This document shows, piece after piece, positions 5,311 to 29,039 of a stretch of DNA of 38,130 bases. Below the pieces are notes generated by a model, which saw nothing but the letters and a program-made list of their open reading frames with translations, was not told where the DNA came from and made no database searches. A program made the translations under genes and the position numbers. This stretch comes from Prevotella sp. (lineage in GTDB: Bacteria; Bacteroidota; Bacteroidia; Bacteroidales; Bacteroidaceae). The stretch is from positions 1 through 38,130 of the forward strand of contig JAFUVV010000005.1 of NCBI GenBank assembly GCA_017477435.1, written 5' to 3'. The number at the start of each line of letters is the position of its first letter. The stretch's first letter is position 1.

Positions 5311-5398
5311 AGTACATGGGTCTTGTACTGGGAGTACATGGCTTTTGTACTGAGAGTACATGGGCTTTGTACTGGGAGTACATGGGCCATGTACTGTT
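5311..5398. repeat. Family A palindromic 22-bp array, copy 1 (4 units)
   Basis: Four head-to-tail units of exactly 22 bp start at 5311, 5333, 5355 and 5377. Each reads AGTACA-N7-TGTACT plus three variable bases. The last is a full 9+1+9 palindrome (AGTACATGG-G-CCATGTACT). The array ends 117 bp before the flippase start and about 97 bp before its -7 element. Confidence 0.9.
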
Positions 5399-5494
5399 GG
5401 CGACGGGTTTGTCAGGCGGCGGAGAAGAGGTGGTGGGCTTCGGCTGATGGTGCATTTTTTGCTTATTTGTTTTCGGTTATTACACGAAAATGTC

Positions 5495-5503
5495 TACTTT
5501 TGC
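5495..5503 (+). promoter_or_regulatory. Promoter -7 element of the flippase gene
   Basis: TACTTTTGC fits TAnnTTTGC and lies 12 bases before the ATG at 5516. The -33 region is weak. Confidence 0.5.
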
Positions 5504-5515
5504 CGTTAGTTATAT

Positions 5516-6964
5516 ATGGAAAGTCTGAAAGAGCGAACGGCAAAGGGTCTTTTCTGGGGTGGCATGAACAACGTGGTACTCCAGGTGGTGGGGGTGGTGT
5601 TTGGCATCATCCTCGGCCGCACGTTGAATCAGTCGGACTTTGGTATGATGGCGATGATCAGCGTTTTCTCGCTTGTTGGCACTACGTTGCAGGACAGTGG
5701 GTTCAAGACGGGTCTTGCCAACATGAAGTCCCCACGGCCGGAGGACTACAACTCGGTGTTCTGGTTCAATATTCTGATGGGTACGGGCATGTATGCGTTG
5801 CTGTTCTTCTGTGCTCCTCTGATTTCGCGGTTCTACGGCGTTGCCGAGCTTACTGCTCTCTGCCGCTATGCTTTCCTGTCTATCGTGATTGCCTCTCTGG
5901 GCACGGCTCAGAGTGCGTGGTTGTTTAAGAACCTGCGTGCCCGCCAGATGGCGAAGGCTTCGATGGCTGCGGTGATAGTGTCGAGCACCGTCGGTGCCTG
6001 CATGGCGATAGCCGGGATGGCCTACTGGTCGCTTGCCACGCAGGGACTGATGTATGTAGGAGTGAATACGTTCCTGCTGTGGCACTACTCTGAGTGGCGT
6101 CCGACGATGACTATCGACTTCGGCCCCGTGAAGCGGTTGTTTCCCTTCTCGATAAAGATATTGGCCACGAATATTACCACCAATATTAATAATAATGTGG
6201 TGAACATCCTCCTTGGCCGCTTTTTCGGAAAGCAGGCTACGGGAGTCTACAACCAGGCCTACCAGTGGGACACGAAGGCCTACTCGCTTGTTCAGGGCAT
6301 GGTCAGTCAGGTGGCACAGCCCGTCTTGGTGAGTCTCGACGACGATCGCGAGCGTCAGCTGAATGCGTTTCGCAAGATGATGCGCTTCACTGCCTTCATC
6401 GCCTTCCCTCTGCTTTTCGGGCTGGCGCTTGTGGCGCGCGAGTTTATCGTCATCGCCATCACCGAGAAGTGGCTTCCGAGCGTCGAACTGCTTCGGCTGC
6501 TGTGCATCAGCGGTGCCGTGATGCCTCTGGCCACGCTGATGTCGAACCTCATCATCTCTCGCGGCGAGTCGGGCATCTACTTCCGCTCCACCCTCGCCTT
6601 CTGCCTCACGCAGATTACCGTGCTCATCGCCATCCACAGCCTCGGCATACGTGCAATCGTCGTTGCCTATGTGGCGCTGAACCTCGTGTGGCTGCTGGTG
6701 TGGTATGTTTTCGTGCGTCGCCTGACGGGCTATCGTCTGCGCCACTTGCTGCTCGACACACTGCCCTTTGCCCTCGCCGCCGCACTGACAATGGCGGTCA
6801 CGTGGGTGATAACGCGCCAGATAGGGTCTCTGTGGGTACTGCTACTATCGCGCATAGCGATTGCCGCAGCCGTCTACTTCATCATAATGAAGTCGGCTCA
6901 CGCAAGGATTCTCGACGAGTGTATGGCTTTCCTGCTCAAGAGGAAACAAAAAAATGATCCTTAA
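5516..6964 (+). CDS. Wzx/WzxC-type polysaccharide flippase
   Basis: A 482-residue polytopic membrane protein with about 12-14 predicted helices. It opens with an amphipathic SLKERTAKGLFWGGM segment and the typical first helices of the Polysacc_synt family (VVGVVFGIILGRTLNQSDFG). The length is normal for WzxC-type O-antigen or capsule repeat-unit flippases, which move lipid-linked oligosaccharides across the inner membrane. It sits at the head of a region with LicD and several glycosyltransferases, which fits surface-polysaccharide export. The ATG at 5516 follows a -7 element by 12 bases. The stop codon lies inside the outer part of the inverted-repeat element that follows. The specific substrate cannot be read from sequence. 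Confidence 0.9.
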   Translation: MESLKERTAKGLFWGGMNNVVLQVVGVVFGIILGRTLNQSDFGMMAMISVFSLVGTTLQDSGFKTGLANMKSPRPEDYNSVFWFNILMGTGMYALLFFCAPLISRFYGVAELTALCRYAFLSIVIASLGTAQSAWLFKNLRARQMAKASMAAVIVSSTVGACMAIAGMAYWSLATQGLMYVGVNTFLLWHYSEWRPTMTIDFGPVKRLFPFSIKILATNITTNINNNVVNILLGRFFGKQATGVYNQAYQWDTKAYSLVQGMVSQVAQPVLVSLDDDRERQLNAFRKMMRFTAFIAFPLLFGLALVAREFIVIAITEKWLPSVELLRLLCISGAVMPLATLMSNLIISRGESGIYFRSTLAFCLTQITVLIAIHSLGIRAIVVAYVALNLVWLLVWYVFVRRLTGYRLRHLLLDTLPFALAAALTMAVTWVITRQIGSLWVLLLSRIAIAAAVYFIIMKSAHARILDECMAFLLKRKQKNDP

Positions 6965-7233
6965 ACCCAAATTGGTCATTAGAACGAGAAAAGGGATATT
7001 ATAGTTTGAAAAACTCTCTTTATACTATAGCTGCACCTGTTTTGCCATCTTACCGCCTTTATCATTACTTTCCCCTTCGGACATTTTTCAATACGTTCAA
7101 CAGCTCGTCGTCCTCAGACAGTGACCGTTGGTTCTCGTCGTAGCCCGCTACGTCTTCAAAGATAAAACCGCTAATCTGGCTAAAACAGGTGCAGCTATAT
7201 AATAAAGTCTAATGACCGATTTGGACTAAGGAC
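6958..7233. mobile_element. Inverted-repeat element, probable internally deleted IS (MITE-like)
   Basis: Nested inverted repeats enclose about 130 bp. The outer pair 6967-6983 and 7208-7224 (CCAAATYGGTCATTAGA) matches at 16 of 17 positions, and weak similarity (CCTTA) continues outwards to about 6958 and 7233. The inner pair 7026-7047 and 7177-7199 (TATAGCTGCACCTGTTTT then GCCA or AGCCA) differs by one inserted base. The interior holds the tail of an ORF on the minus strand. Long terminal repeats around the end of a decayed ORF are what an internal deletion of an insertion sequence leaves. No clear target duplication was found. A long hairpin of another origin is the alternative. Confidence 0.5.
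7065..7176 (-). pseudogene. C-terminal ORF remnant inside the inverted-repeat element
   Basis: The minus strand reads about 36 protein-like residues, including IFEDVAGYDENQRSLSEDDE and then LLNVLKNVRRGK, ending at TAA (7065-7067). The charged, helix-forming composition looks like a real C-terminus. No start codon or upstream domain is present, since the frame runs straight into the inverted repeat. It is probably the tail of a transposase whose body was deleted, but the family is not recognised. Confidence 0.4.
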
Positions 7234-7261
7234 TCTGACTTCCTTAAGGATTTTTTTTTTT
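7227..7261 (+). terminator. Hairpin with T11 tract downstream of the flippase
   Basis: AAGGA (7228-7232) can pair with TCCTT (7241-7245), and an overlapping TCCTTAAGGA palindrome is followed by eleven T (7251-7261). This suits termination of plus-strand transcripts before the convergent licD gene. Confidence 0.5.
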
Positions 7262-7284
7262 CACGACGCTCATTCTGCGGCTCT

Positions 7285-8127
7285 CTATCCGAACTTCAGC
7301 TCGTCGGGACGATGGTTCACCTTCATCTCGTCGGGGATGTCCTTGCGCAGATGCGGATAGTGGGTCTCCAGATAATCCAGCAGGTTTTTAGGTGCTGCCA
7401 CCATCAGCGGTCCGAACTCCACCTGCTGAGTATTCTTCACGTCGTTGGCATCGACGATGTCGTTGGTCGTGACGATGTTTTTCAGCCTGTCGGCACGGGT
7501 GTGATTGAACCATGTCTGTATCCACCTGATCGTGCCATAGATAGCTCGTTTCGGGAGCAACGCATTTACGATGCGCGTTATCAGGCACGCCGCAAATCCC
7601 CTTTCTCTCGGCACATCCACCTGGCACCGCCCGCAATGGCGCCACTGCCACAGCTCCTTGCCTATGAAGCAGGCATTGAAGAACCCGAGGGCCTCATACT
7701 GCAGCTTCTCGAGCCATGCCCGACGGGGTATCTTGTCGAAGGGAAACACGTCGACGAAGATGCCCTGATGCATGTCGATATCCTTAAAATCGTGCTCGGC
7801 AAAGAGAGTCCCGTTCTTTCTTATCTTTGCAAACCAGAACGGCGTGTGCTCCTCGCTGAGGGGGCTCTGGAGATAATACTCGCTTCTCAACACCGCCGGT
7901 GCCTCGCGGAGAAACCGCTCGTAGTCGCACCGAGGCATACCGATGTCGATGTCGTCGTCCCACGGGAGAATCGACTGCCAGTAATATGCGCCGATGGCCG
8001 TACCGCCGATAATGAAATAGCGCAGGCCCAGATGGTCGCACACGCGCATCATCTCGGAAGTGATATCGTAGAGCACAGCATGCAACTGATGCAGCTCCTC
8101 AGAGGTGTATTGATGACTTTTGTTCAT
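7285..8127 (-). CDS. LicD family phosphotransferase
   Basis: A 280-residue protein. The LicD signature is clear: GLRYFIIGGTAIGAYYW followed by the metal-binding ILPWDDDIDIGMPRCDYERF. LicD proteins belong to the nucleotidyltransferase fold and transfer phosphorylcholine or similar phospho-groups from a CDP donor to surface glycans. The start at 8127 (MNKSHQYTSEEL) is chosen over the longer reading to 8241 because a -7 element (8139-8147) lies just upstream and the extra residues are unlike the family. The neighbours are a flippase and a phosphorylcholine-phosphatase-like HAD protein, which fits decoration of a surface polysaccharide. The actual group transferred is inference. Confidence 0.85.
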   Translation of the reverse strand: MNKSHQYTSEELHQLHAVLYDITSEMMRVCDHLGLRYFIIGGTAIGAYYWQSILPWDDDIDIGMPRCDYERFLREAPAVLRSEYYLQSPLSEEHTPFWFAKIRKNGTLFAEHDFKDIDMHQGIFVDVFPFDKIPRRAWLEKLQYEALGFFNACFIGKELWQWRHCGRCQVDVPRERGFAACLITRIVNALLPKRAIYGTIRWIQTWFNHTRADRLKNIVTTNDIVDANDVKNTQQVEFGPLMVAAPKNLLDYLETHYPHLRKDIPDEMKVNHRPDELKFG

Positions 8128-8138
8128 AATTGGATGCT

Positions 8139-8147
8139 GCAAAGATA
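8139..8147 (-). promoter_or_regulatory. Promoter -7 element of licD
   Basis: The minus strand reads TATCTTTGC, 11 bases before the ATG at 8127. A TTTG lies 16 bases further upstream, shorter than the usual 19-21, so the -33 is doubtful. The very short leader is typical of this phylum. Confidence 0.5.
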
Positions 8148-8281
8148 AGGATTTTTCTAATAACAAAGAAAACATCGACAGTACTTCTGCACTTTCACCA
8201 TACATTTCCACCCGCAGTATCCGGCCTTGATACTGACGCATGACGGCATTGCATGCGGAAAAAAGTTATTTCTGCAAAACC

Positions 8282-8315
8282 TTTGACATTATTCGGAAAT
8301 AATGTGTAAATTTGC
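8282..8315 (+). promoter_or_regulatory. Promoter of the HAD phosphatase gene
   Basis: TTTG (8282-8285), 21 bases, then TAAATTTGC (8307-8315). The spacer contains a dyad ATTATT-CGGA-AATAAT, which could be an operator. The ATG follows at 8346. Confidence 0.65.
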
Positions 8316-8345
8316 AACAACGAATCTAAAAGAATAAAAACATAC

Positions 8346-9536
8346 ATGAAAATGAAAGAAGACACCGTAAGATCTGCTAAATTCACTTCGCGCAAAGCCA
8401 TCACGTTGCTGTTCTTCGCCGTCATGGCTGCAATCATCGCCCTATGCTACATCGCCCTTCACGACGAAGTGGCCTTCGACAAAGAAGGATGGGACCCTGA
8501 CGTCCACAAGGGTCTCAACTCGCTCATCATCGAGCGCTCGGGAATGGGCAACTATGCTGTCTTCGACTTCGACAAGACCACCATCGTGCACGATGTGTCG
8601 AATGCTCTGCTCGTATACCAAGTGGAGAACCTGAAGTTCGGCACTGCCCCTGACCACTCGTTCCTCGATGCCATCAGCGACATCGACAAGAAATTGCAAG
8701 GCACCGACATCACCTCGCGCGAGATGGGCGACACGCTCAAGGCGGAGTACGACCGCATGATGTCGCGCCTCGCTGCCGGCGAGAGCATGGAGGCGATTCG
8801 CACTGGCAACGACTACCTCGACTTCCGAGCCCGATTCATATCACTGCTCGATCTGCTCAGCCAGACATTCCCCGAGGAAGTGTGGTATGCCTGGATGCCA
8901 GGACTGCTCACCGGACTGACCACAGAAGAAGCACAGGCGCTCATAAGCGAAGCAATCGACGACCAGCTGGGCAAGGACAAGCTGCAGAAAGAGGAATGGC
9001 GGTCGCCGGATGGAAAATGGGGCGGTCCCGTAGAGAAAGGCATCTATCTGCCCGAAGAAATGAAGAATCTATATAAAGCCCTCAACGACAACGGCATCGA
9101 CACCTACATCTGCTCGGCATCGCTCGAACTGATAGTAGAAGCACTCGCATGTGACTCCGTGCGCGGACTGGGCCTCAGCAAAGACCGTGTCTTCGGACTG
9201 CGATTCGCGGAATGCCCACGCATCACAGCGAAATACGACCCCGAATACACCCAGCCGATGATGGAAGGAAAGGTGGAATGCATCAAAAACTACATCGCCC
9301 CCAACTACGGCGGTCGCGGACCAGTGCTCGTGGGCGGCGATAGCAACGGCGACGTGCCAATGCTCACAGCCTTCGACGACACACGAAACTCACTGATTAT
9401 CGACGTCGGACGTAGTCCCGAATCAAACATCGGACGCCTGGCAACGCAAGCAAAGAGCGAAGACAACAAAGGCCGATTCCTGCTCCAGCCGGCATTCGCC
9501 AAAGCAAAAGGCGACATAGAATGGGAAGGAATCTGA
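8346..9536 (+). CDS. Membrane-anchored HAD phosphatase (phosphorylcholine/phosphoserine phosphatase-like)
   Basis: A 396-residue protein. Residues of about 18-38 form one membrane helix or uncleaved signal, so the catalytic part probably faces the periplasm. HAD motif I is AVFDFDKTT with nucleophile D74 and acid/base D76. Motif II is likely YICSAS in the middle. Motif IV is VGGDSNGDVPML (D332, D336). The large cap insertion between motifs I and II matches the phosphoserine/phosphorylcholine phosphatase subgroup. It is divergently transcribed from licD, which makes a link to phosphorylcholine-type substituents attractive, but that is inference. A general phosphomonoesterase is possible. Confidence 0.75.
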   Translation: MKMKEDTVRSAKFTSRKAITLLFFAVMAAIIALCYIALHDEVAFDKEGWDPDVHKGLNSLIIERSGMGNYAVFDFDKTTIVHDVSNALLVYQVENLKFGTAPDHSFLDAISDIDKKLQGTDITSREMGDTLKAEYDRMMSRLAAGESMEAIRTGNDYLDFRARFISLLDLLSQTFPEEVWYAWMPGLLTGLTTEEAQALISEAIDDQLGKDKLQKEEWRSPDGKWGGPVEKGIYLPEEMKNLYKALNDNGIDTYICSASLELIVEALACDSVRGLGLSKDRVFGLRFAECPRITAKYDPEYTQPMMEGKVECIKNYIAPNYGGRGPVLVGGDSNGDVPMLTAFDDTRNSLIIDVGRSPESNIGRLATQAKSEDNKGRFLLQPAFAKAKGDIEWEGI

Positions 9537-9626
9537 GGAAAGCCCCCTCCCACCTCCCCCATGGAGGAGGAACTCTGAACATGAGAAGATGAAAATAAAT
9601 CACAGAGAGAAAAGCAACAAGGGAAT

Positions 9627-10643
9627 ATGAATGCGGCAAGGATTGACATATCGGTGCTGATACTCTTTTTCAACCGTCCCGACCACCTGAAAGAAGTATT
9701 TGAGGCAGTGCGCCAGGCACGGCCTGCACGACTGTTTCTCTACCAGGACGGCCCGCGCAGCGAGAAAGACATGGCCGGGATAACGGAGTGCAGGAAAATA
9801 GTCGAGGAAATAGACTGGGAGTGCGACGTGCGCCGGTGGTATCAGGAAGAAAACCAGGGCTGCGACCCCTCGGAGTATCTGTCGCAGAAATGGGCCTTCT
9901 CGATGACCGACAAGTGCATCGTGCTCGAAGACGACGACGTGCCCTCGCAGTCGTTCTTCCGCTTCTGCAAGGAGATGCTCGACCGCTATGAAGACGACCC
10001 CAGAGTGTGGATGATAGCCGGGTTCAACGCCGAGGAAAAGACCGAAGACGCTCAGTCCGACTACTTCTTCACGACGGTGTTCAGCATCTGGGGATGGGCA
10101 TCGTGGCGGAGAGTCGTCGATACATGGGACGAGAAATACTCTTGGCTCGACGACAAGAACACCGTTGAGCGCTTCGAGGAAATGGCACGAAAACGACAGT
10201 TGAGAAAGGACTTCCTGCCGATGTGCCGCGACCATCGAGAGTCGGGAATAGCATACTACGAGACCATCTTTTGGTCGTCGATGCTATTGAACAACGCACT
10301 GGCCATAATGCCGAAACAGAATATGGTGAACAACCTCGGTGTGTCGGCCGAGAGCACCCACTTCACAGCCAACCTGAGCACCATTCCTTCGCGCCTCAGA
10401 CGGATGTTCACCATGCCACGTTACGACATAGAGTTCCCGCTGCAACACCCCGACAAGGTGGAGGAAAACACTGCCTACAAGACACGCATCTACAAGATAA
10501 ACGCCTGGGGATACCCGCTCATAAAGATCAGATATTCGCTGGAAGAACTGTGGAACAATCTCCGGCAAGGCAATTTCACCCTCATAGCCAAGGCCATTTC
10601 AAACCGTATACGCAAACTGACAGGCAGAAAGAAATATCGATAG
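9627..10643 (+). CDS. Glycosyltransferase, GT-A fold (GT2-like)
   Basis: A 338-residue protein. The N-terminus ISVLILFFNRPDHLKEVFEA is a nucleotide-sugar-binding start of GT-A enzymes. CIVLEDDDVPS supplies the DxD-type metal-binding motif. A later stretch FSIWGWASWRRVVDTWDEKY is shared by Bacteroidota proteins of this group, sometimes labelled hemolysin-activation-like. No signal or membrane helix is seen, so it acts in the cytoplasm at the inner membrane face. It is the first of four glycosyltransferase-type genes read in one direction up to about 14.7 kb and probably adds a sugar to the surface polysaccharide unit. Donor and acceptor are unknown. Confidence 0.8.
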   Translation: MNAARIDISVLILFFNRPDHLKEVFEAVRQARPARLFLYQDGPRSEKDMAGITECRKIVEEIDWECDVRRWYQEENQGCDPSEYLSQKWAFSMTDKCIVLEDDDVPSQSFFRFCKEMLDRYEDDPRVWMIAGFNAEEKTEDAQSDYFFTTVFSIWGWASWRRVVDTWDEKYSWLDDKNTVERFEEMARKRQLRKDFLPMCRDHRESGIAYYETIFWSSMLLNNALAIMPKQNMVNNLGVSAESTHFTANLSTIPSRLRRMFTMPRYDIEFPLQHPDKVEENTAYKTRIYKINAWGYPLIKIRYSLEELWNNLRQGNFTLIAKAISNRIRKLTGRKKYR

Positions 10644-10658
10644 CGATAGGACGAAAGG

Positions 10659-10724
10659 GACGAAAAGACGATAACGAAGGGACGAGAAGACGATAACGAA
10701 GGGACGAAAAGACAATAACAATAA
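10659..10724 (+). repeat. Purine-rich 22-bp direct repeats
   Basis: Two and a half copies of a unit that starts GACGAAAAGACGATAACGAA and is 22 bases long begin at 10659, 10681 and 10703, decaying into AACGAAAACG-type sequence up to about 10750. The unit is not palindromic, so it is distinct from families A and B despite the same period. It fills the gap between two glycosyltransferase genes. Confidence 0.7.
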
Positions 10725-10771
10725 CGAAAACGAAAAAGAAAACGATAACAAAATCCACCATTGGGAGGATT

Positions 10772-11857
10772 ATGGAGAGCTCGACGACAAAGAAGATGAG
10801 AGCATACTACTACAACACTCGCGACGTGCAGTTCATGTGGCAGCAATGGGAGGACGGACAGATGCCTTCCCACCTGCTCTACGGAGCAACGCTCCTGCCC
10901 GAGCATGGCATCGAGCTTGTGATGCATCGCTCGTCGAAAGTGTGGACAAGATGGCGGCTGATGATTGTCACGGCATGGCGGATACTGACGTGCCGGCAGC
11001 GCTACGACGTGCTCTACGCCACCGCCTTCCGCGGCCTCGAACTGATTATATTCCTGCGGGCACTGCACCTCTACCGCCATCGGATCGTCGTATGGCACCA
11101 CCAGCCGATAGTGGAATCGAAGAGTAGGCTGCGAGAAATCGTGGCCCGTCTGTTCTATCGAGGCATCGACGACATGTTTTTCTTCTCGGAGAAAATCATT
11201 GCCGACTCGCTGAAGTCGGCCAAGGCCCGACCTGAACGGATGCACCTGGTTCACTGGGGTGCCGATCTCGGCTTCTACGACCGGATAAAGAGCCTCCGAC
11301 AGGAAAAGCAATACCAGTTTATATCCACCGGAAAAGAGCTGCGCGACCACACTACCCTTGTCAGGGCCTTCAACGAGACAGACGCTCGGCTCGACGTCTT
11401 CACCCTGAACTATCACGGCGACAAGAATCCCGACACCGCTCTCGAGACCATCCCTCTGAAGGAGAACATCCACGTCCACTACACCGACGGACGTCTCATC
11501 CCTCTCGAGCTGGCGAAGGAGGCAGACCGTGCCACGTGCGTCGTGATCTGCAGCTACGCGACCAACTACACCGTCGGACTGACGACGCTCGTGGAGGCTA
11601 TGGCACTCGGGCTGCCGATCATCTGCAGCCGAAACGCGCAGATGCCCTTCGACGTGGAAAAGGAAGGCTGCGGCATCACCGTAGGTTATGGCGACGTGGA
11701 AGGATGGAAAAGGGCTGTGGAATACATTCAATCCCACCCCGAGGAAGCACGACAGATGGGGGCAAAAGCCCGCAGGATGGCCGAGGAGAAATACAACGAC
11801 CGCATCTGCGCAAACGAAATTGCCGACATAATCAGGGGGAAGGGAAAGAAGGAATGA
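10772..11857 (+). CDS. Glycosyltransferase, GT-B fold (GT4-like)
   Basis: A 361-residue protein. The N-terminal half carries a Rossmann-like domain (YDVLYATAFRGLELIIFLRA, then HRIVVWHHQPIVES). The C-terminal half shows the usual GT4 donor-site region: GLTTLVEAMALGLPIICSRN, where the E of VEAMALG corresponds to the EX7E region. There are no membrane helices beyond possible peripheral association. The start at 10772 (MESSTTKKMRAYYY) has an alternative Met nine residues in. The stop overlaps the next gene's start by four bases (ATGA), so they form one transcription unit. The sugar specificity is unknown. Confidence 0.8.
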   Translation: MESSTTKKMRAYYYNTRDVQFMWQQWEDGQMPSHLLYGATLLPEHGIELVMHRSSKVWTRWRLMIVTAWRILTCRQRYDVLYATAFRGLELIIFLRALHLYRHRIVVWHHQPIVESKSRLREIVARLFYRGIDDMFFFSEKIIADSLKSAKARPERMHLVHWGADLGFYDRIKSLRQEKQYQFISTGKELRDHTTLVRAFNETDARLDVFTLNYHGDKNPDTALETIPLKENIHVHYTDGRLIPLELAKEADRATCVVICSYATNYTVGLTTLVEAMALGLPIICSRNAQMPFDVEKEGCGITVGYGDVEGWKRAVEYIQSHPEEARQMGAKARRMAEEKYNDRICANEIADIIRGKGKKE

Positions 11858-12852
11858 AAAAAGAAAAGCACGAAATGAACAACATACCCCTGTCCGGCAA
11901 AGGGCTGGAGGCAAACTCTGACCAGACTTCCCTCCTCTACATGCCCCGGCAGCTCCAAGAAGCTCCGAAGTATATCTACGGCGGAGTGGCTGCCGACAGC
12001 GACCTGAGACTGCTGAACGACTTCACGCGTCAGCCAAAGAACTTCGTCCATCGACTGCTGAAGTTCCTCTTCGTGGGTCGCATTCCACTAAGTGCCAACG
12101 TCGTAGCCCGACTCACAGGATTCGACGGATACAAGCAACTGACCCGGATAGCACCCTCCGACCGTCTTCTGCTCGACGGCGTGTCAAATCCGCGAACGCT
12201 GAAGGCAATACGATGGATCGTTCCCCGACAGACACGATGCTACGACTTTTTCAACAACTCCCTGCGCTTTGTCTACGGCAACACCGACATCGACGCCACG
12301 ACAAAGCGAATAAAAAAGATTGGTTACCAATTGGCAACCTTCGATCCTGCCGATGCTGAGAAATACGGAATGCTCTACACCGAGCAATACTATCGTTTCC
12401 CCGACGGGCCGGCAACCGTGGAAGAGGAGTACGACTTCTTCTTCTGCGGAGCGAGCAAGGACCGCACGGAACGCCTCCACTCGCTACGGTCGATGCTCGA
12501 AGGGAAGGGATTCCGATGCCTGTTCATCGACGTGAAGAGCCCCTCCGAAAGAATCAGCTACGAGCAATATCTCAGCTATTTGAGCAGAAGTCGCTGCCTG
12601 GTCGACCTCATGCAGGAAGGACAGACAGGCATCACCCGACGACCGGTAGAAGCACTGTTCTGGAACAAAAAGCTCCTCACCGAGAACAGTCACATCGCCC
12701 GTTACGACTTCTACGACGAGCGGAACATCTCTATCCTCACGGCTGAGACGGAGAAGGAGATAGAGAAGTTTATGTCGACTCCAATGTCGGAGGTGCCAAC
12801 AGAGATAAAACGCCGCTACGACATAAACCACTGGCTCAGATACTTCAAATAG
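11854..12852 (+). CDS. Polysaccharide-biosynthesis protein, glycosyltransferase-like
   Basis: A 332-residue protein. The ATG at 11854 overlaps the previous stop (ATGA); the frame stays open 318 bases further upstream but only as a shadow of the preceding gene. An ATG at 11875 is possible. The sequence has DFFFCGASKDRTERLHSLRS followed by YLSYLSRSRCLVDLMQEGQ and RRPVEALFWNKKLLTEN. This pattern resembles CgeB-like or LPS-core glycosyltransferases with a GT-B C-terminal domain. The family assignment is tentative, but coupling to the GT4-like gene and the surrounding pathway make a role in glycan assembly likely. Confidence 0.65.
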   Translation: MKKEKHEMNNIPLSGKGLEANSDQTSLLYMPRQLQEAPKYIYGGVAADSDLRLLNDFTRQPKNFVHRLLKFLFVGRIPLSANVVARLTGFDGYKQLTRIAPSDRLLLDGVSNPRTLKAIRWIVPRQTRCYDFFNNSLRFVYGNTDIDATTKRIKKIGYQLATFDPADAEKYGMLYTEQYYRFPDGPATVEEEYDFFFCGASKDRTERLHSLRSMLEGKGFRCLFIDVKSPSERISYEQYLSYLSRSRCLVDLMQEGQTGITRRPVEALFWNKKLLTENSHIARYDFYDERNISILTAETEKEIEKFMSTPMSEVPTEIKRRYDINHWLRYFK

Positions 12853-12970: not shown

Positions 12971-13102
12971 ACTATCAAGGCCGGATAGTGATGCTATCTG
13001 AAGCAGACTGTTTTAGTATCAAGGCCGGATACTATCAGTATCAAAGCCAGATACTGGTAGTATCAAAGCCAGATAGCGGCAGTATCAAGCCCAGATACTG
13101 GC
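12971..13102. repeat. Family B palindromic 22-bp array, copy 1 (6 units)
   Basis: Six head-to-tail 22-bp units start at 12971, 12993, 13015, 13037, 13059 and 13081. The consensus is AGTATC-N7-GATACT plus three variable bases. Unit 1 reads ACTATC...GATAGT, a paired change in both arms. Unit 2 is degenerate. The array ends 271 bp before the start of the next glycosyltransferase gene. Confidence 0.9.
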
Positions 13103-17503: not shown

Positions 17504-17591
17504 AGTACATGGGCCTTGTACTCCGAGTACACGAACGTTGTACTAAGAGTACATGGGCCATGTACTGAGAGTACAAGAACCATGTACTACA
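17504..17591. repeat. Family A palindromic 22-bp array, copy 2 (4 units)
   Basis: Four 22-bp units start at 17504, 17526, 17548 and 17570. Unit 3 is the perfect 9+1+9 palindrome. Unit 2 keeps the outer AGTACA/TGTACT arms but has a different centre (CGAACGT). The array ends only 33 bp before the GTG start at 17625, so it must lie in the leader or overlap the promoter of the transporter gene. Confidence 0.9.
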
Positions 17592-20037: not shown

Positions 20038-20046
20038 TACAAGAAC

Positions 20047-22197: not shown

Positions 22198-23368
22198 ATA
22201 GTGTCTTTGTTATACCCATCTCAAGTCCGCGGAGCTCTGCCAGTCCGCGCAGGCGGCCGATGCAAGAATAGCCCGGATTGGTCTTCTTCTTGAGGTCGTC
22301 GATCATCTGATGCCCATGGTCGGGACGCATCACGATGCCTTCGCCGCGCTTCTGCTGTATTTCGACGAATGCCTTCATCACCTCATACATGTCGACATCG
22401 CCCTCCAGATGGTAGGCTTCATAGAAGTTTCCTTCCTCATCGCGCTTTGTAGAGCGCAGGTGTACAAAGTGGATTCTGTCGGCAAAGCGTCGCATCATGT
22501 CGGCACAGTCGTTATCGGCACTCACGCCGAGCGACCCTGTGCAGAGGCACAGTCCGTTGGCCATGCTCGGCACGGCATCGATGAGGCGCTGGAAGTCTTG
22601 GGCATTGCTCATGATGCGTGGCAGTCCGAGTATCGACATCGGTGGGTCGTCGGGATGTATCACGAGCTTCACGCCAGCCTCTTCTGCTGCGGGACACACC
22701 TCGCGGAGGAAGTATATCAGATTCTCACGCAGTTTCTCGGCTGAGATATCTTTATATATGTCGAGCTCATGCTGGAACTGCTCGAGCGTGAAGCTCTCTT
22801 CTGAGCCTGGCAGCCCGGCAATCATATTTCTCACGAGCGTGTGCTTCTCCTCGTCGGTCATGCCTTCGAATCTCTTGCGGGCGCGCTCTTTCTCTTCGTC
22901 GCTGTAGTCGTTTTCTGCTCCGGGACGCTTTAGTATGAACAGGTCGAAGGCCACGAAGGCAGCGCGTTCGAAGCGCAGTGCGCGCGAGCCGTCGGGCATG
23001 AGATATGCCAGATCGGTGCGTGTCCAGTCGAGCACAGGCATGAAGTTGTAGGTCACGACCGTTATGCCACACCGTCCCAGGTTGCGCAGCGACTCCTTGT
23101 AGTTGTCTATATACCGCTGGAAGTCGCCCTCTTGCGTCTTTATGTGCTCATGCACCGGCACGCTTTCCACGGCGCTCCATGTGAGTCCGGCACGCTCGAT
23201 TTCTTCCTTGCGGCGCATGATTTCTTCCACTGTCCACACCTCTCCATTTGGGATGTGGTGAAGGGCTGTGACTACTCCTGTGCAGCCAGCCTGACGTATG
23301 TCGCTCAGGCTGACGGGGTCGTTAGGCCCATACCAGCGAAACGACTGTATTGATAGCATTTTGCTCAT
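22190..23368 (-). CDS. uxuA: Mannonate dehydratase
   Basis: A 392-residue protein, the normal length for UxuA. It removes water from D-mannonate to give 2-keto-3-deoxygluconate, using Mn2+ or Fe2+ in a TIM barrel. Visible signatures: [20 protein letters not shown] at the start, [36 protein letters not shown] and the metal-binding RPDHGHQM. The start overlaps the preceding SDR stop (ATGA). The neighbours supply its substrate (the reductase) and use its product (kdgK, kdgA). Confidence 0.95.
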
Positions 23369-24177
23369 ATAGAATATACATTAAATCCTCCGTCAACCAC
23401 GGCCACTGTACCTGTGACGAACTGCGCTGCATCGCTGATCAGGTAGTGTATCGTGCCGCATAGTTCTTCTGGCTGTCCCATGCGTCCCATCGGCGTCTGC
23501 TGGATGATATGCTCGCCGCGTGGCGTCCACGTGCCGTCGGGATTGGTGAGCAACGTGCGGTTCTGGTTTGTCAGGAAGAATCCTGGAGCAATGGCGTTTA
23601 CGCGGATGTTGGGACTGAACTTTGTAGCCACCTCCGTTGCCATGTATGCCGTGAAATTGCTCACGCCGGCCTTTGCCACGCCGTATCCTGCCACTCGTGT
23701 GAGCGGACGGAAGGCCGACATCGACGAGAAGTTGACTATTGCGCCTTTGCCTGCTTCCACCATCGGGCGCAGGAACACCTGCGTGGGCAGCACCGTGCCG
23801 ACGAGGTTGAGGTTCAGCACTTTCTCGAATGCCTCTGGACTGAGGTCGAAGAACGTTGCATCGGGAGCTATCGTCGCGCCGGGCATATTGCCTCCGGCAG
23901 CGTTGAGGAGCACGTCGATGCGGCCGTAGCGGGCCATGATGTCCTCCAGATTCTTCTCCAGCACGTCCTTGTTGAGCACGTCGGTGATGAGGAACATTGC
24001 GTCGCCGCCCATGTCTTCTATTTCTTTCACTCGCTCCTGACCCTCCTCCTCGCGGCGGTCGAGAAGCACTATCTTTGCACCCTGCTGGGCCAGATACTTT
24101 GAAATGGCATGTCCCAGAATGCCAGTACCGCCTGTGATCACCACAACGCGGTCGCGAATATCGAAAAGGTTATTCAT
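23365..24177 (-). CDS. SDR-type D-mannonate oxidoreductase (fructuronate reductase)
   Basis: A 270-residue short-chain dehydrogenase. The cofactor loop is [19 protein letters not shown], then NAAGG, the catalytic Ser in NFSSMSAF, and the YxxxK pair in [10 protein letters not shown]. It is not the long-chain UxuB family, but it sits between kdgK and uxuA at the step where fructuronate must be reduced to mannonate, and SDR proteins fill that role in many Bacteroidota. This functional call therefore rests on context. A gluconate-5-dehydrogenase-like activity is the alternative. The start at 24177 ([13 protein letters not shown]) is chosen as the usual SDR N-terminus. Confidence 0.85.
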
Positions 24178-24279
24178 AGTTCTTAATGCGTAATTAAGAG
24201 ACAAAAGGCAAGAGATTTGCTTTTTTACTGCAAAACATGTCTCACTCTTCGTTAATTTGTTAATTTGTCAACTTGTTTT

Positions 24280-25305
24280 TCACCTTTGCACTCTTCCCGA
24301 TCCGTCGCCTCCGGCAAGCGCTTCCACCTCGGCAGTGCTCACCATGTTCACGTCGCCCGGAATCGTATGCTTCAGCGCCGATGCTGCCACGGCAAACTCC
24401 AGCGCTTCGCCCTGCGTCGGCTTTGTGAGCAGGCCGTGGATGAGTCCAGCAGCAAACGCGTCGCCGCCGCCCACACGGTCCACAATCGGCTCTATGTCGT
24501 AGCGCCGCGAGGTGTAGAACTCGTGGCCGTTGTATATCATTGCCTTCCATCCGTTGTGCGATGCCGAGAACGACTCGCGCAGCGTGCTGGCCACATATCT
24601 GAATCCAAACTCGCGGGCCATCTGCTCGAAAATCACCTTATACCCCTCGGCGTCGGTCTTGCCGTGGGTCACGTCGGCCTCGGGCTTGAACCCCAGACAG
24701 AGCTCAGCATCCTCCTCGTTGCCGATGCACACGTCGACATATTCCATCAGCGGCCGCATCACGCTCTGCGCCTTCTCCGGCGTCCAGAGCTTCTTGCGGA
24801 AGTTGAGGTCGCACGACACGGTGGCGCCTGCCTTCTTCGCAGCCTTGCATGCAAGACCGATGAGCACGGCAGCACGGTCGCTAATCGCCGGTGTGATGCC
24901 CGTCCAGTGGAACCACCGCGCACCAGACATGATACGGTCGAAATCGAAATCCCCTGCCTCGGCCTCGGCTATTGCCGACCCGGCACGGTCGTATATCACC
25001 TTGCTCGGACGCATCGCCGAACCTGTCTCGGCGAAGTAGATGCCCACGCGGCGGCCGCCACGCACGATCATCGACGTGTCCACACCATACCGGCGCAGAG
25101 AGTTCACAGCTCCCTGTCCAATCTCATTATCAGGCAGTTTCGTCACGTAGGCCACCGAGTGACCATAATTGGCCAGACTCACAGCCACGTTTGCCTCACC
25201 GCCACCATAGACGGCATCCAGCACCTCAGCCTGCACAAAACGCTGACAACCCTGAGGCGACAAACGAAGCATAATCTCCCCGAAAGTTACTATACGATTT
25301 TTCAT
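24280..25305 (-). CDS. kdgK: 2-dehydro-3-deoxygluconokinase (PfkB family)
   Basis: A 341-residue ribokinase-like enzyme: an N-terminal FGEIMLRLSPQG start, a GGGEANVAVSLANYG substrate lid, and the PfkB signature DRVGGGDAFAAGLIHG with the catalytic Asp. It phosphorylates 2-keto-3-deoxygluconate to KDPG using ATP. First gene of the uronate operon; a -7 element and a dyad lie directly upstream, so it carries the operon's regulatory region. About 100 bases separate it from the SDR gene, a looser junction than the overlaps further on. Specificity for KDG is inferred from the operon. Confidence 0.92.
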   Translation of the reverse strand: MKNRIVTFGEIMLRLSPQGCQRFVQAEVLDAVYGGGEANVAVSLANYGHSVAYVTKLPDNEIGQGAVNSLRRYGVDTSMIVRGGRRVGIYFAETGSAMRPSKVIYDRAGSAIAEAEAGDFDFDRIMSGARWFHWTGITPAISDRAAVLIGLACKAAKKAGATVSCDLNFRKKLWTPEKAQSVMRPLMEYVDVCIGNEEDAELCLGFKPEADVTHGKTDAEGYKVIFEQMAREFGFRYVASTLRESFSASHNGWKAMIYNGHEFYTSRRYDIEPIVDRVGGGDAFAAGLIHGLLTKPTQGEALEFAVAASALKHTIPGDVNMVSTAEVEALAGGDGSGRVQR

Positions 25306-25324
25306 TGCTTTTGTCTTTCAGTTT

Positions 25325-25339
25325 GTTACAAACAGTAAC
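25325..25339 (-). promoter_or_regulatory. Candidate operator in the kdgK leader
   Basis: GTTACAAACAGTAAC is a 5-bp inverted repeat around a five-base centre, overlapped by GTTTG-TTA-CAAAC. It lies between the -7 element and the start codon of kdgK, a good position for a repressor acting on the uronate operon. No regulator gene is nearby. Confidence 0.4.
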
Positions 25340-25344
25340 CAAAA

Positions 25345-25353
25345 GCAAAGTTA
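25345..25353 (-). promoter_or_regulatory. Promoter -7 element of the uronate operon
   Basis: TAACTTTGC on the minus strand, about 40 bases before the kdgK ATG. The -33 region is AT-rich without a clear TTTG at 19-21 bases. Confidence 0.55.
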
Positions 25354-25497
25354 ATTCTTTTTTTTAATAATAAAAAAGAAAAAGTCAAAAAATTGTGCTC
25401 GCAAACAAAACAAATCCACTGCCGACACACAAAAAGCACAGCCGCCCGTCGCCGCCACACGTTCTTGTCATTTTCACCATAATTTAAACCTGTCGGC
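25354..25497. other. Intergenic region upstream of the kdgK promoter
   Basis: An A/T-rich tract (25354-25400), then GC-rich unremarkable sequence up to the family B array. I see no gene here. The gap between kdgK and dxr is 486 bases in all and also contains the array and a final stretch (25630-25791) with a CCTGCA/TGCAGG hairpin near 25735-25757 that could end the dxr transcript. Confidence 0.5.
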
Positions 25498-25629
25498 AGT
25501 ATCAAGCCCAGATACTGGCAGTATCAAAGCCGGATAGCGATGGTATCAAGCCCAGATACTGGCAGTATCAAAGCCAGATACCAACACCATCAAAGCCAGA
25601 CAGCGATACTATCTAGCCCAGATACTGCA
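25498..25629. repeat. Family B palindromic 22-bp array, copy 2 (6 units)
   Basis: Six 22-bp units start at 25498, 25520, 25542, 25564, 25586 and 25608, with the same consensus AGTATC-N7-GATACT-NNN as the array at 12971. Units 4-6 are more degenerate. It lies upstream of the kdgK promoter and downstream of the dxr stop. Confidence 0.9.
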
Positions 25630-25791
25630 GGCGAAGGAAACAATCTGCCTGTCTGTGCCATTCAGTACATGGCACAGAACGCATTTGGTCTCTCGCAAGA
25701 GAAACGTAAGGAATATGGGCTAGATATTATCCATGCCTGCATTCTTTGTTATGCAGGGCTAGGTTCGGATGGTTCGAAAACTGAAAAGAAC

Positions 25792-26946
25792 TTACGTGAG
25801 TTCTTCTCGGGCTATCTGTCGTGCTTCGGCGTCGGTGGCGAGATAGGTGTCGAGCGACGCGTTGCTGGAGAATGTTGCGCGGTGCATGGTGTGCTCTATT
25901 ATGCGTGCCACGTCGAGGAACGAGCATTGCCCGCGGCGGAAGGCGTCGTTGGCTATCTCGTTGGCTGCATTGACAATACACGGCATGTTGCCTCCCCGGG
26001 CGAGAGATTCGAATGCGAGGGCGAGGCAGGGGAAGCGACGGGTGTCGGGACGGAAGAACTCGAGGCGCTTGTCGAAGAGCGAGAGGCGCTCGCCGTTGAG
26101 TGGTAGACGCTCGGGGAAGGAGAAGGCATACTGAATGGGCAGACGCATGTCGGGCACACCGAGCTGCGCTTTCACCGAGCCATCGGCAAACTCCACGGCG
26201 CTGTGGACAATCGACTGGGGATGGATGAGCACCTCTATCTTCTCGGCAGGGACGCCGAAGAGCCAGCGTGCTTCTATCACCTCGAAGCCTTTGTTCATCA
26301 GTGTGGCAGAGTCGATAGTTATCTTTGCCCCCATGTCCCACGTCGGGTGACGCAGGGCATCGGCGGCGGTGACGGTAGACAGTTGCTCGTCGGAGAGCAG
26401 CCGGAAGGGCCCACCGGAGCAGGTGAGGAGAATTTTCGCCACTTCATTGTCGCCTTCTCCCACGAGGCTCTGGAATATGGCGGAGTGCTCGCTGTCGACG
26501 GGCAGGATGGGCACGTGGTACTCTGCGGCGAGACGGGTGATCAGTTCGCCGGCGACAACGAGAGTCTCTTTGTTGGCCAGACAGATTTTCTTCCGTGCCC
26601 TGATGGCGTTGACGGTCGGCTCAAGACCAGAGAATCCTACCATTGCCGTGAGCACCATGTCGATCGGGTCGGCCTCCACGATCTGACAGAGAGCGTCGCG
26701 ACCGGCGTAGACCTTGATATCTGGCATGTCGGCAAGGAGCTGACAGAGGCGTTCGTAGTGCTGCTCGTTGGCGATGACAACAGCAGCGGGGTTGAACTCG
26801 CGGGCTTGCTGGGCAAGCTGCTCAACGCGGTTGTTGGCGGTGAGGCAATAGACTTCGTAGCGGTCAGGATGCTGCCGGACTACGTCGAGGGCCTGCGTGC
26901 CGATGGATCCTGTGGACCCGAGGATGCATATTTGACTTTTTCTCAT
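25792..26946 (-). CDS. dxr: 1-deoxy-D-xylulose-5-phosphate reductoisomerase
   Basis: A 384-residue protein (E. coli 398). The NADPH-binding motif ICILGSTGSIGTQALDVV is at the N-terminus, CLANKETLVVAGELI follows, and LPVDSEHSAIFQ contains the metal/substrate-binding Asp-Ser-Glu. It makes 2-C-methyl-D-erythritol 4-phosphate in the MEP isoprenoid pathway. The start is taken at 26946 (MRKSQICIL) rather than 26967, since the earlier residues come from a microrepeat-like intergenic sequence. It ends a conserved Bacteroidota gene string with murA and rimM. The site-2 protease gene that often follows dxr in this phylum is absent here; the family B array stands in its place. Confidence 0.95.
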   Translation of the reverse strand: MRKSQICILGSTGSIGTQALDVVRQHPDRYEVYCLTANNRVEQLAQQAREFNPAAVVIANEQHYERLCQLLADMPDIKVYAGRDALCQIVEADPIDMVLTAMVGFSGLEPTVNAIRARKKICLANKETLVVAGELITRLAAEYHVPILPVDSEHSAIFQSLVGEGDNEVAKILLTCSGGPFRLLSDEQLSTVTAADALRHPTWDMGAKITIDSATLMNKGFEVIEARWLFGVPAEKIEVLIHPQSIVHSAVEFADGSVKAQLGVPDMRLPIQYAFSFPERLPLNGERLSLFDKRLEFFRPDTRRFPCLALAFESLARGGNMPCIVNAANEIANDAFRRGQCSFLDVARIIEHTMHRATFSSNASLDTYLATDAEARQIAREELT

Positions 26947-26999
26947 CTTCCTGTTTACAACTTTCAATTTTCAACTTTCACCTTTCACCTTCCACTCGT

Positions 27000-27527
27000 T
27001 CAGCCATTTAGCGAGGCGAGTCCTTCGGGGAGGGCGACGATGATCTGTCTTTTTTCTACATCTACGTGGCCTACTATCTCGTCGGCCACGGGTATGAGCA
27101 GTTCGCCGCCGTCGGGGGTGACGACTTCGATGAGTGTGTTGATGGTTGAGAGGTTGAAGTTTTTCACATGTCCGACCGTCTGACGGCTGTTCTCGTCGTA
27201 GACGCTGAATCCAACCATCTCTGCCCACGACAGGGTGCTGCCTTCGTTTGATGGCGAGAGGCGGCGCTCGAAATAGACGTCGCACCCCGTCAGCCGACGT
27301 GCTTCGTCGGTGGTGTCGATGTCGGTGAACTTAACGAGAAGCGTCTCGTCGGTACGGAAGCGGTACTCATCGAAGAAGAAGGGGACGAGGATGCCGTCGA
27401 CGTCGAGCACGACATAGTCGGCATCGATGCGGTCGAACACATCGTCGTCGATGTGCGTCGTCAGCTCTCCTTTCACTCCATGAGGCTTTCCTATCCGTCC
27501 GATACGGAAGACTTCGTTGTAATTCAT
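27000..27527 (-). CDS. rimM: Ribosome maturation factor RimM
   Basis: A 175-residue protein with the diagnostic N-terminus VFRIGRIGKPHGVKGEL of the RimM barrel, followed by a PRC-barrel C-terminal domain (NLSTINTLIEVVTPDGGELL). It helps 30S maturation through ribosomal protein S19. It lies between murA and dxr on the same strand; a GGTGATGGGTGACGGG microrepeat fills the gap to murA. Confidence 0.93.
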   Translation of the reverse strand: MNYNEVFRIGRIGKPHGVKGELTTHIDDDVFDRIDADYVVLDVDGILVPFFFDEYRFRTDETLLVKFTDIDTTDEARRLTGCDVYFERRLSPSNEGSTLSWAEMVGFSVYDENSRQTVGHVKNFNLSTINTLIEVVTPDGGELLIPVADEIVGHVDVEKRQIIVALPEGLASLNG

Positions 27528-27585
27528 AGTTATTGGTGATGGGTGACGGGTGGTTGGTGATGGTTGGATTTTGACCGATTCGTGA

Positions 27586-28896
27586 TCAGTCGTTCACCCT
27601 GGTGATCTTTGCTCCGAGGGCCTGGAGGCGCTGCTCTATGTTCTGATAGCCGCGGTCGATCTGTGCGATGTTGTCGATGTGGCTCGTTCCCTTTGCGCTG
27701 AGGGCTGCTATGAGTAGTGCTATGCCTGCACGTATGTCGGGGCTCGACATGCGTCCGGCACGCAGTCTGACTTTGTGGTCGTGGCCTACGACGACTGCCC
27801 TGTGGGGGTCGCAGAGGATTATCTGCGCGCCCATGTCGATGAGCTTATCGACGAAGAAGAGCCGGCTCTCGAACATTTTCTGATGGAAGAGCACACTTCC
27901 CCGTGCCTGTGTGGCAACGACGATGAGCACGGAGATGAGGTCGGGGGTGAGTCCTGGCCACGGTGCGTCGGCGAGGGTCATGATGGTACCGTCGACGAAG
28001 GAGGAGACGACATAGTGCGGCTGTCGCGGCACGACGATGTCGTCGCCGTCGATCTCGAGCTTCACGCCGAGTCGGCGGAAGGCATCGGGGATGAGTCCGA
28101 GGTTCTCCACGGAGACGTCTTTTATTCTTATTCCGTCGCCTACCATTGCTGCCATTCCGATGAACGACCCCACCTCGATCATGTCGGGCAGTACGGTGTG
28201 CTGCGTGCCTGAGAGTTCGTTCACTCCCTCAATGGTGAGGAGGTTCGAGCCGATGCCTGTGATGCGTGCGCCCATGCTGTTGAGCATGCGGCAGAGTTGC
28301 TGGATGTATGGCTCGCAGGCGGCATTGTAGATTGTCGTCGTGCCTTCGGCCAGCACGGCTGCCATGATGATGTTTGCCGTGCCGGTGATAGAGGCTTCGT
28401 CGAGGAGCATGTAGCATCCCTTCAGGTGGTCGGCTTCGATGTGATAGAGTCCCGACTGCTCGTCGTGTACGAACTCTGCTCCGAGCTTCTTGAACCCGAG
28501 GAAATGTGTGTCGAGCCGCCGCCGCCCTATCTTGTCGCCGCCAGGCTTTGATATCGATGCCTCGCCGAAGCGTCCGAGCAGGGGGCCGAGCATGAGCACG
28601 CTGCCTCTGAGCCGCGAGCACTTCATGATATACTCTGGGGAGCGCAGACGTGTGAGGTCGATGTTCTCAGCCGAGAAGGTATAGTCGCCGAAAGCATTGT
28701 GGCTGACGCTGACGCCGATGTCCTGGAGCAGTCGTATCAGGTTCACAACGTCGAGAATCTCGGGCACGTTCTTTATCCTCACCTCTTCCTTTGTGAGCAG
28801 CACTGCCCCGATCACCTCCAGCGCCTCGTTCTTCGCGCCCTGAGGACATATCGTGCCGCTGAGACGATGGCCGCCTTCTATTATAAACGATTCCAT
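27586..28896 (-). CDS. murA: UDP-N-acetylglucosamine 1-carboxyvinyltransferase, Asp-type
   Basis: A 436-residue enzyme catalysing the first committed step of peptidoglycan synthesis. The N-terminal GAKNEALEVIGAVLL holds the K22/N23 pair. The active-site loop reads SISKPGGDKIGRRRLD: the residue equal to Cys115 of E. coli MurA is D121. Asp in this position is known from Mycobacterium, Chlamydia and Borrelia enzymes and prevents covalent inactivation by fosfomycin. The start at 28896 (MESFIIEGG) is standard. The family A array 3 lies 55 bp upstream, in the gap to DUF4290. Confidence 0.95.
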   Translation of the reverse strand: MESFIIEGGHRLSGTICPQGAKNEALEVIGAVLLTKEEVRIKNVPEILDVVNLIRLLQDIGVSVSHNAFGDYTFSAENIDLTRLRSPEYIMKCSRLRGSVLMLGPLLGRFGEASISKPGGDKIGRRRLDTHFLGFKKLGAEFVHDEQSGLYHIEADHLKGCYMLLDEASITGTANIIMAAVLAEGTTTIYNAACEPYIQQLCRMLNSMGARITGIGSNLLTIEGVNELSGTQHTVLPDMIEVGSFIGMAAMVGDGIRIKDVSVENLGLIPDAFRRLGVKLEIDGDDIVVPRQPHYVVSSFVDGTIMTLADAPWPGLTPDLISVLIVVATQARGSVLFHQKMFESRLFFVDKLIDMGAQIILCDPHRAVVVGHDHKVRLRAGRMSSPDIRAGIALLIAALSAKGTSHIDNIAQIDRGYQNIEQRLQALGAKITRVND

Positions 28897-28951
28897 GTTA
28901 TTGCGGGATAATGTTAAGCATTTGAGTCTAATTCATAAAAGCATAGCCGGC

Positions 28952-29039
28952 AGTACATGGGCCATGTACTGCGAGTACATAGCTTCTGTACTTGGAGTAC
29001 AAAGGCTTTGTACTGAGAGTACATGGTTCTTGTACTTCA
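28952..29039. repeat. Family A palindromic 22-bp array, copy 3 (4 units)
   Basis: Four 22-bp units start at 28952, 28974, 28996 and 29018. Unit 1 is the perfect palindrome with ATGG/CCAT inner arms; unit 3 is also a perfect 9+1+9 palindrome but with inner arms AAAG/CTTT, so both arms changed together. The array sits between the DUF4290 and murA genes, inside what is otherwise a conserved gene string. Confidence 0.9.

What the first reader, a model, noticed from the sequence alone, without database searches (positions are those of the whole stretch)
5311..29039. Two families of intergenic palindromic arrays with one shared 6-7-6-3 geometry
Five arrays of exactly 22-bp units lie in intergenic DNA. 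Family A (5311-5398, 17504-17591, 28952-29039) is AGTACA-N7-TGTACT-NNN; family B (12971-13102, 25498-25629) is AGTATC-N7-GATACT-NNN. Sequence differs, yet arm length, centre length, spacer and period are identical, and both start AGTA and end TACT. This suggests two specificities of one system, such as related DNA-binding or recombination proteins. At 22 bp each dyad falls on nearly the same helix face. I do not know a described repeat class that matches.
Basis: partly seen in the sequence, partly recalled or inferred. Interest (0 to 1): 0.88.

Follow-up and report, generated by a model that had tools for sequence, protein, structure and literature searches.

The report
Four-dyad 22-bp intergenic binding-site arrays
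A Prevotella-group bacterium carries an estimated hundred or more short intergenic arrays of four near-identical DNA "landing sites" set about two helical turns apart, and relatives carry arrays with the same spacing but different letters, which suggests an undescribed family of DNA-binding systems whose spacing is fixed while its sequence changes between species.

Summary
The own genome has 400 adjacent AGTA-N11-TACT pairs in the 22-bp register (reversed control 0), 6 of them strict family-B pairs. In 736 kb sampled (32%, not random), all 47 multi-unit family-A arrays have exactly four units and lie between called genes. Family B has a shorter core, TATC-N7-GATA, and 2-6 units. Both share a directional centre, and hybrid units exist, so "two specificities of one system" is supported.

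The wider finding: in 80 Prevotella-group loci around murA, 37 tandem-dyad arrays have period 22, and at most 4 any other period from 15 to 40. Arm sequences differ between species.

Arms are conserved while centres and spacers vary. Inner pairing is below expectation, and no pairing between units is supported. This favours protein dimers on duplex DNA over hairpins. No excess at RAYT loci, no target duplication and no family-A pair in viral contigs were found. The binding protein is unknown. Even spacing (about 9 kb) holds here but not in a second high-copy genome.

Closest published: PINSR of P. intermedia, function unknown.

The parts
5311..5395 (.). Family A array, 4 units AGTACA-N7-TGTACT, 3-bp spacers; flanks GGCGGC / GTTGGC
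17504..17588 (.). Family A array, 4 units, between a GH127 gene and an SBF-family (PF01758) transporter gene
28952..29036 (.). Family A array, 4 units, between DUF4290 and murA; no array at this junction in the RUG12886 bin (L255) or in the 17 relatives whose upstream side was printed
12971..13099 (.). Family B array, 6 units in the 22-bp register, core TATC-N7-GATA; units 1, 2 and 5 are not AGTATC-N7-GATACT
25498..25626 (.). Family B array, 6 units in the register, between the PfkB-family kinase gene and dxr; only unit 1 matches AGTATC-N7-GATACT in full
8216..8234 (.). Single B-type dyad AGTATC-N7-GATACT outside any array

Best explanation
Each array is a platform for a sequence-specific DNA-binding protein that sits on duplex DNA as a row of dimers. 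Each 19-bp dyad takes one dimer, and the 22-bp pitch (about two turns of B-DNA) puts successive dimers on nearly the same face so they can contact one another. In family A the platform is four dimers. Families A and B are read by two related proteins, or two specificities, of one type, and other Prevotella-group species have their own versions. Because the family-A arrays stand at an estimated hundred or more intergenic sites without regard to gene direction, the most likely role is chromosome-wide (nucleoid or domain organisation) rather than control of particular genes. Shown: geometry, copy number, four-unit rule for A, intergenic placement, arm conservation, low inner self-complementarity, recurrence of the pitch in relatives. 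Inferred: the protein, cooperative binding, the chromosomal role.
For: Exactly four units in 47 of 47 multi-unit A arrays, a unit being counted with up to 4 of 12 arm mismatches. Arms nearly invariant (23 mismatches in 1200 letters; 58 in 2256 in the larger set) while centres and spacers vary. Between two strains 97.2-97.7% identical, 3 of 4 arrays scored: arms 1/144, centres 4/84, spacers 3/27; small numbers, no test run. No pairing between centres of different units beyond chance. Centre positions 7/13 complementary in 0.17 of 84 A units against 0.44 expected and 0.15 of 68 B units against 0.41. 47 of 47 in called intergenic regions; flanking gene directions resemble the background, no formal test. 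Even spacing, CV 0.45 against about 0.85 for random intergenic sites, 0 of 1000 simulations as even under each of two nulls. Period 22 in relatives: 37 arrays against at most 4 at any other period. No strict A pair in the viral-contig collection.
Against: No binding protein was found; among the 14 largest neighbour clusters printed I recognised no regulator. Even spacing fails in a second high-copy genome (G404, AGTAACC family, CV 0.90, as random); there 8 of 42 listed arrays have a fourth strict unit and the rest three. Lrp/AsnC, the octamer I first thought of, is present in 58 of 61 genomes of the family at 1-4 copies and gave no lead. Position-specific signals and lineage-specific amplification also fit copying of a mobile block. 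Spacers, unlike centres, are alike within an array (0.53 against 0.40 between), which no step of this model explains.
Confidence: 0.5

Rival explanations
1. The arrays are non-autonomous mobile elements (REP- or MITE-like) copied as a block by an unknown transposase that reads the dyads; the lack of close neighbours is insertion immunity or loss by recombination between near copies.
For: Lineage-specific amplification. No array at the DUF4290-murA junction of relatives. Unit positions carry their own signal across arrays, 0 of 200 permutations. In P. vespertina and P. veroralis about ten of 19 printed GTTTCA arrays have, by eye, conserved flanks that are inverted repeats of each other. No same-family neighbours closer than 2.9 kb here or 6.6 kb in G404 (P 0.002 with estimated contig lengths). 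2 of 4 Y1 transposase hits of the own genome have an array within 1 kb.
Against: No consistent target-site duplication in 47 arrays. No near-identical copies, best pair 93%, median 79%. Arms conserved far above spacers. Loci around 33 Y1 hits: the scan found 2 arrays in 100.8 kb (one doubtful, and it missed the B array known) against 4 in 128.4 kb around murA (one doubtful).
Confidence: 0.3
2. The array works as an RNA or single-stranded DNA hairpin (terminator, RNA stabiliser or structured RNA).
For: The array RNA folds far better than shuffles, z -6.3 to -10.0 for the three A arrays on both strands, unit 1 with 4 and 2 with 3. 22 bp is two turns of an A-form helix (recalled). In B the variable outer letters show a weak excess of pairing within a unit, 85 of 136 against 73.5, p 0.024, but p 0.10 when permuted within arrays.
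Against: Any row of palindromes folds so, and dyad sites for a dimer also give symmetric outer letters. No pairing excess between units for centres or spacers or for B outer letters in the long-hairpin register (75 against 73.4). Inner positions pair less than expected. Convergent genes not preferred, 10 of 47. No Rfam match in the window.
Confidence: 0.08
3. Self-DNA tags for uptake or recombination, with a species dialect, like uptake sequences.
For: Species-specific sequence, no strict A pair in viral contigs, even spacing in this genome.
Against: Copy number is low for an uptake tag; arrays rather than single words; no competence link was tested.
Confidence: 0.05
4. Ordinary minisatellites that happen to be palindromic.
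For: 22-bp arrays that are not palindromic also occur (9 of 47 and 20 of 91 non-palindromic arrays). Spacers are alike within an array (0.53 against 0.40).
Against: Fixed four units in 47 of 47 A arrays, centres not homogenised within arrays (0.571 within, 0.579 between), arms conserved.
Confidence: 0.05

Closest known systems
[quoted passage not shown]
   Same: Intergenic, 177-184 copies, found in one Prevotella group, no terminal inverted repeats, function unknown, said to have played some role in rearrangement
   Different: Described as one 188-bp repeat; section 3.4 mentions no 22-bp dyad phasing; its sequence is in a figure that is not held, so I could not test whether it is one of these arrays
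REP/BIME elements with RAYT (TnpA-REP) transposases (search listing only; details recalled)
   Same: Short intergenic palindromes in high copy, species-specific
   Different: No excess of arrays at Y1 transposase loci; inner pairing below expectation; fixed 22-bp tandem pitch
BrickBuilt MITE of Porphyromonas gingivalis, PMC4596501 (abstract and passages)
   Same: Intergenic element of a Bacteroidales species built of tandem short units between flanks
   Different: 23-nt unit, the word palindrome does not occur in its text, 19 copies in one strain, leader and tail with small inverted repeats
Palindromic candidate RNAs of Bacteroidetes, PMC8040213 (passages)
   Same: Intergenic candidates of 80-132 bp seen on both strands
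   Different: Found beside particular genes or predicted terminators; sequences not held, not compared
Chromosome-wide binding sites such as parS, Noc sites, SlmA sites (recalled)
   Same: Dispersed palindromic protein sites
   Different: Those are single sites of one conserved sequence; here phased arrays whose sequence differs between species

Membership tests
REP/BIME (RAYT-linked) | Linked Y1 transposase (PF01797) flanked by the repeat | tested here: not met
   33 loci, 100.8 kb: 2 arrays found (one doubtful) plus one known array that the scan missed; murA loci 4 in 128.4 kb. Loci were held for part of the hits only
REP/BIME (RAYT-linked) | Stem-loop maintained by pairing | tested here: not met
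   No pairing excess between units; inner pairs below expectation; weak within-unit excess at B outer letters, p 0.024
MITE | Target-site duplication | tested here: not met
   No consistent flanking duplication in 47 A arrays
MITE | Terminal inverted repeats | tested here: inconclusive
   Short GGC..GCC flanks in family A; mirrored flanks in about ten of 19 GTTTCA arrays of two other species, by eye
PINSR | 188-bp sequence of the P. intermedia group | not testable with these tools
   Sequence is in a figure only
Structured RNA families (Rfam) | Match at gathering score | tested here: not met
   0 matches in the window
Lrp/AsnC octamer site | Regulator presence follows the arrays | tested here: inconclusive
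   58 of 61 genomes of the family have 1-4 copies, own genome 3; arrays were not counted in those genomes
Chromosome-organising site | Bound in vivo by a dedicated protein | not testable with these tools
   No binding data

The most novel reading that the evidence does not exclude
A Prevotella-group-wide, undescribed chromosome-organising system in which dimers of a fast-diversifying DNA-binding protein family assemble on arrays of 3-6 dyads at a fixed 22-bp pitch. Specificity turns over from species to species while the pitch is kept, so geometry, not sequence, is the conserved signal.
Probability: 0.3. Interest if true: 0.9.

Novelty: new variant of a known kind. Interest (0 to 1): 0.7.

Why it matters
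Bacterial repeats are grouped by sequence; here the kept feature is geometry. If the binding protein is found, the Prevotella group becomes a natural experiment in co-evolution of a protein with its many sites in one genome, and a test of whether bacterial chromosomes carry dedicated anchoring sites. It may also explain PINSR, an unexplained repeat of an oral pathogen.

Tried and rejected
RAYT/REP origin: not supported on loci around 33 Y1_Tnp hits. Against this: in the own genome 2 of 4 Y1 hits have an array within 1 kb (C21, about 0.8 kb; C56, just downstream); the C56 gene's upstream carries a different repeat, and the scan missed that B array.

Lrp/AsnC octamer as the binder: no lead; a true tracking test was not done.

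Hairpin or terminator: strong folds, but no pairing excess between units and no gene-end preference seen. B outer letters pair within a unit slightly more than chance.

Spacers complement each other less within an array than across arrays (z -3.4 to -4.8). I first read this as avoidance; it also follows from spacers being alike within an array (0.53 against 0.40), since like words of odd length do not pair fully.

Polarity of arrays against GC skew: no relation, r -0.19, n 44.

Common regulator beside arrays: 342 neighbour proteins clustered; only the 14 largest clusters were printed and I recognised no regulator.

Empty site at DUF4290-murA: no array in the RUG12886 locus, but too diverged for a clean boundary, and a lone AGTA-N11-TACT word lies there. 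Among relatives only the 17 with murA on the plus strand had the upstream side printed; the scan covered both sides of 29.

Even spacing as a general rule: not borne out in G404.

The RUG12886 bin (G480) looked at first as if the sister shared the arrays (36 pairs with up to 1 mismatch). The array-bearing stretches that I read on two of its contigs are 97.2-97.7% identical to the own genome (one 839-base piece 90%), while its murA locus is about 80%, so I treat the bin as mixed. Arrays of the true sister are unknown outside that locus, where one array of another family appears.

Viral contigs with a looser three-unit AGTA pattern: 5 stretches, none with AGTACA arms. One 131-base array query found nothing in phages or plasmids; short and diverged, so of limited reach.

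Limits: gene calls are my own heuristic (489 genes, coding fraction 0.77). The 735,817 bases of the own genome (of 2,320,315) were not drawn at random: contigs were taken because their lengths or hits were already listed. The 80 loci all lie around murA and some come from genomes already. Unit counts outside families A and B are approximate.
Full report
What is in the window. Three arrays of family A (5311-5395, 17504-17588, 28952-29036) each hold four units AGTACA-N7-TGTACT with 3-bp spacers; two arrays of family B (12971-13099, 25498-25626) each hold six units in the same 22-bp register. The pattern AGTA-N11-TACT occurs 18 times in the window, with 0.15 expected. Family B is looser than the finding says: 4 of its 12 units in the window match AGTATC-N7-GATACT in full, and over 14 B arrays and 68 units its constant core is TATC-N7-GATA (19 mismatches in 544 letters), with variable outer letters (one mixed array left out).

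In the genome. The window is in contig C9 of a 2.32-Mb draft (62 contigs, 78% complete). Two adjacent AGTA-N11-TACT units in the 22-bp register occur at 400 places, the reversed control at none; strict AGTATC pairs make up 6. I read 735,817 bases, not chosen at random. Counting a unit with up to 4 of 12 arm mismatches, family A gives 47 arrays of exactly four units and none of 2, 3, 5 or 6, besides three lone units; family B gives 15 arrays of 2 to 6 units (the window's two are trimmed to four by this rule) and six lone units. By extrapolation the genome has roughly 130-150 A arrays (inference).

Placement. All 47 A arrays fall in called intergenic regions of at least 120 bp and none overlaps a called gene. 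Flanking directions (14 --, 13 -+, 10 +-, 10 ++) resemble the background (73, 53, 38, 67) (no formal test), so they do not look like promoter or terminator elements as a class. Within contigs they are evenly spaced: 31 gaps, mean 8.7 kb, CV 0.45, none below 2.9 kb. Random choice among intergenic regions gives CV about 0.85, and 0 of 1000 simulations was as even under either of two nulls. This did not generalise: in G404, whose AGTAACC family has 91 exact three-unit matches, the 42 arrays of the cut listing have CV 0.90, as random, though again no close pairs (minimum 6.6 kb, P 0.002, contig lengths estimated). There 8 of 42 have a fourth strict unit; of four read in context two have a degenerate fourth.

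What is conserved. Arms: 23 mismatches in 1200 letters; 58 in 2256. Two strains of the species differ in arms at 1/144, centres 4/84 and spacers 3/27 in the three arrays scored; the fourth was dropped by the script's flank filter and, by reading, differs by one spacer letter. The numbers are small and no test was run. Units within an array point the same way (summed polarity 119 against 64 by random flips, maximum 91 of 2000), unit positions carry their own signal (0 of 200 permutations), centre identity within arrays does not exceed that between arrays (0.571, 0.579), and no two arrays are more than 93% identical. Spacers behave otherwise: they are alike within an array (0.53 against 0.40). 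I infer that the arrays are not freshly copied, and that spacers have a constraint of their own that I cannot explain.

Duplex sites, not hairpins. The arrays fold well as RNA (z -6.3 to -10.0 for A), but any row of palindromes does. Centres of units 1 and 4, or 2 and 3, do not complement beyond chance, and spacers complement less than across arrays, partly because they are alike. Centre positions 7 and 13 are complementary in 17% of 84 A units (44% expected) and 15% of 68 B units (41% expected): most units join a TG-type half to an AA-type half. The one result in the other direction is a weak excess of pairing within B units at the variable outer letters (85 of 136 against 73.5, p 0.024; 0.10 within arrays), which a symmetric dimer site would also give. 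So the arms are kept as sequence and inner self-complementarity is low, as for dimer sites on duplex DNA. The same directional centre in A and B, and four hybrid units of 253, tie the two families together.

Relatives. A scan that asks only for palindromy at a fixed period peaks at 22: 24 regions in 795 kb of other genomes of the genus against 1-7 at other periods, 1 in a shuffle and 1 in 262 kb of other families of the order. With a filter for unit similarity it gives 19 against at most 2; in 80 loci from named records, all around murA (1.47 Mb), 37 against at most 4. Other genera of the family gave 3 at period 22 among 8 in 388 kb, with period 16 equal at 3; other families of the order gave none at 22. 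A plain tandem-repeat scan agrees (palindromic arrays: 13 of 16 and 19 of 33 at period 22) and shows that non-palindromic 22-bp arrays also exist. Arm sequences differ: GTTTCA and AAAAGGG types in P. vespertina and P. veroralis, GTAAAA type in P. bivia, AGTAACC in G404, AGTACG in several others. Names come from matching contig lengths. In P. vespertina and P. veroralis, 12 of 19 GTTTCA arrays printed have four units (some are orthologues of each other), and about ten have, by eye, mirrored flanks made of degenerate 22-bp repeats. An inversion between these two species has arrays of one family at its breakpoints.

What it is not. Y1 transposase loci show no excess of arrays, though 2 of 4 in the own genome have one within 1 kb. 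No consistent target duplication, no Rfam match in the window, no strict A pair in viral contigs; one array query matched no phage or plasmid record. Lrp/AsnC proteins are near-universal in the family and gave no lead.

Known relatives. PINSR (PMC4755523, abstract and section 3.4 read) is an intergenic repeat of about 180 copies limited to the P. intermedia group, with unknown function. It is the best candidate for a described member, but I could not compare sequences. BrickBuilt (PMC4596501, abstract and passages) has a 23-nt unit. PMC8040213 (passages) lists palindromic candidate RNAs in Bacteroidetes that I could not compare. My searches of the open library (listings, and passages of four papers) showed no account of a 22-bp dyad class.

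Judgement. The duplex multi-dimer platform is the best-supported mechanism (0.5); its chromosomal role is weaker, since even spacing fails in the second genome. A mobile block with strong constraint on its dyads remains the main rival (0.3). The missing piece is the protein.

Noticed in passing
window 10655-10719: A third intergenic 22-bp tandem repeat, three copies, purine-rich, between two genes; it does not look palindromic.
   Followed up: partly
window 26954-26991 and 32763-32803: 7/14-bp tandem repeats; 14-bp period arrays are also common in other genomes of the genus.
   Followed up: no
L037 3300-4400 (own genome C56): A Y1 transposase gene whose upstream carries its own CCCCGAAGGGG-type repeats, with a family-B array just downstream.
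   Followed up: partly
G480 (bin RUG12886), L255 against L339/L340: The public bin appears mixed: array-bearing contigs are about 97.5% identical to the own genome, the murA locus about 80%.
   Followed up: partly
own genome C5 23337-27048: A segment of about 3.7 kb present here and replaced by about 76 bases in the other strain ends about 12 bp from a family-A array.
   Followed up: no
L089 and L092 (P. vespertina), L095 and L098 (P. veroralis): Inversion between the two species with CAAAGAG-type 22-bp arrays at the breakpoints.
   Followed up: partly
own genome family-A arrays: The three spacers of an array tend to be alike and G- or C-rich on one strand (variance 15.3 against at most 12.4 in 2000 permutations).
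   Followed up: partly
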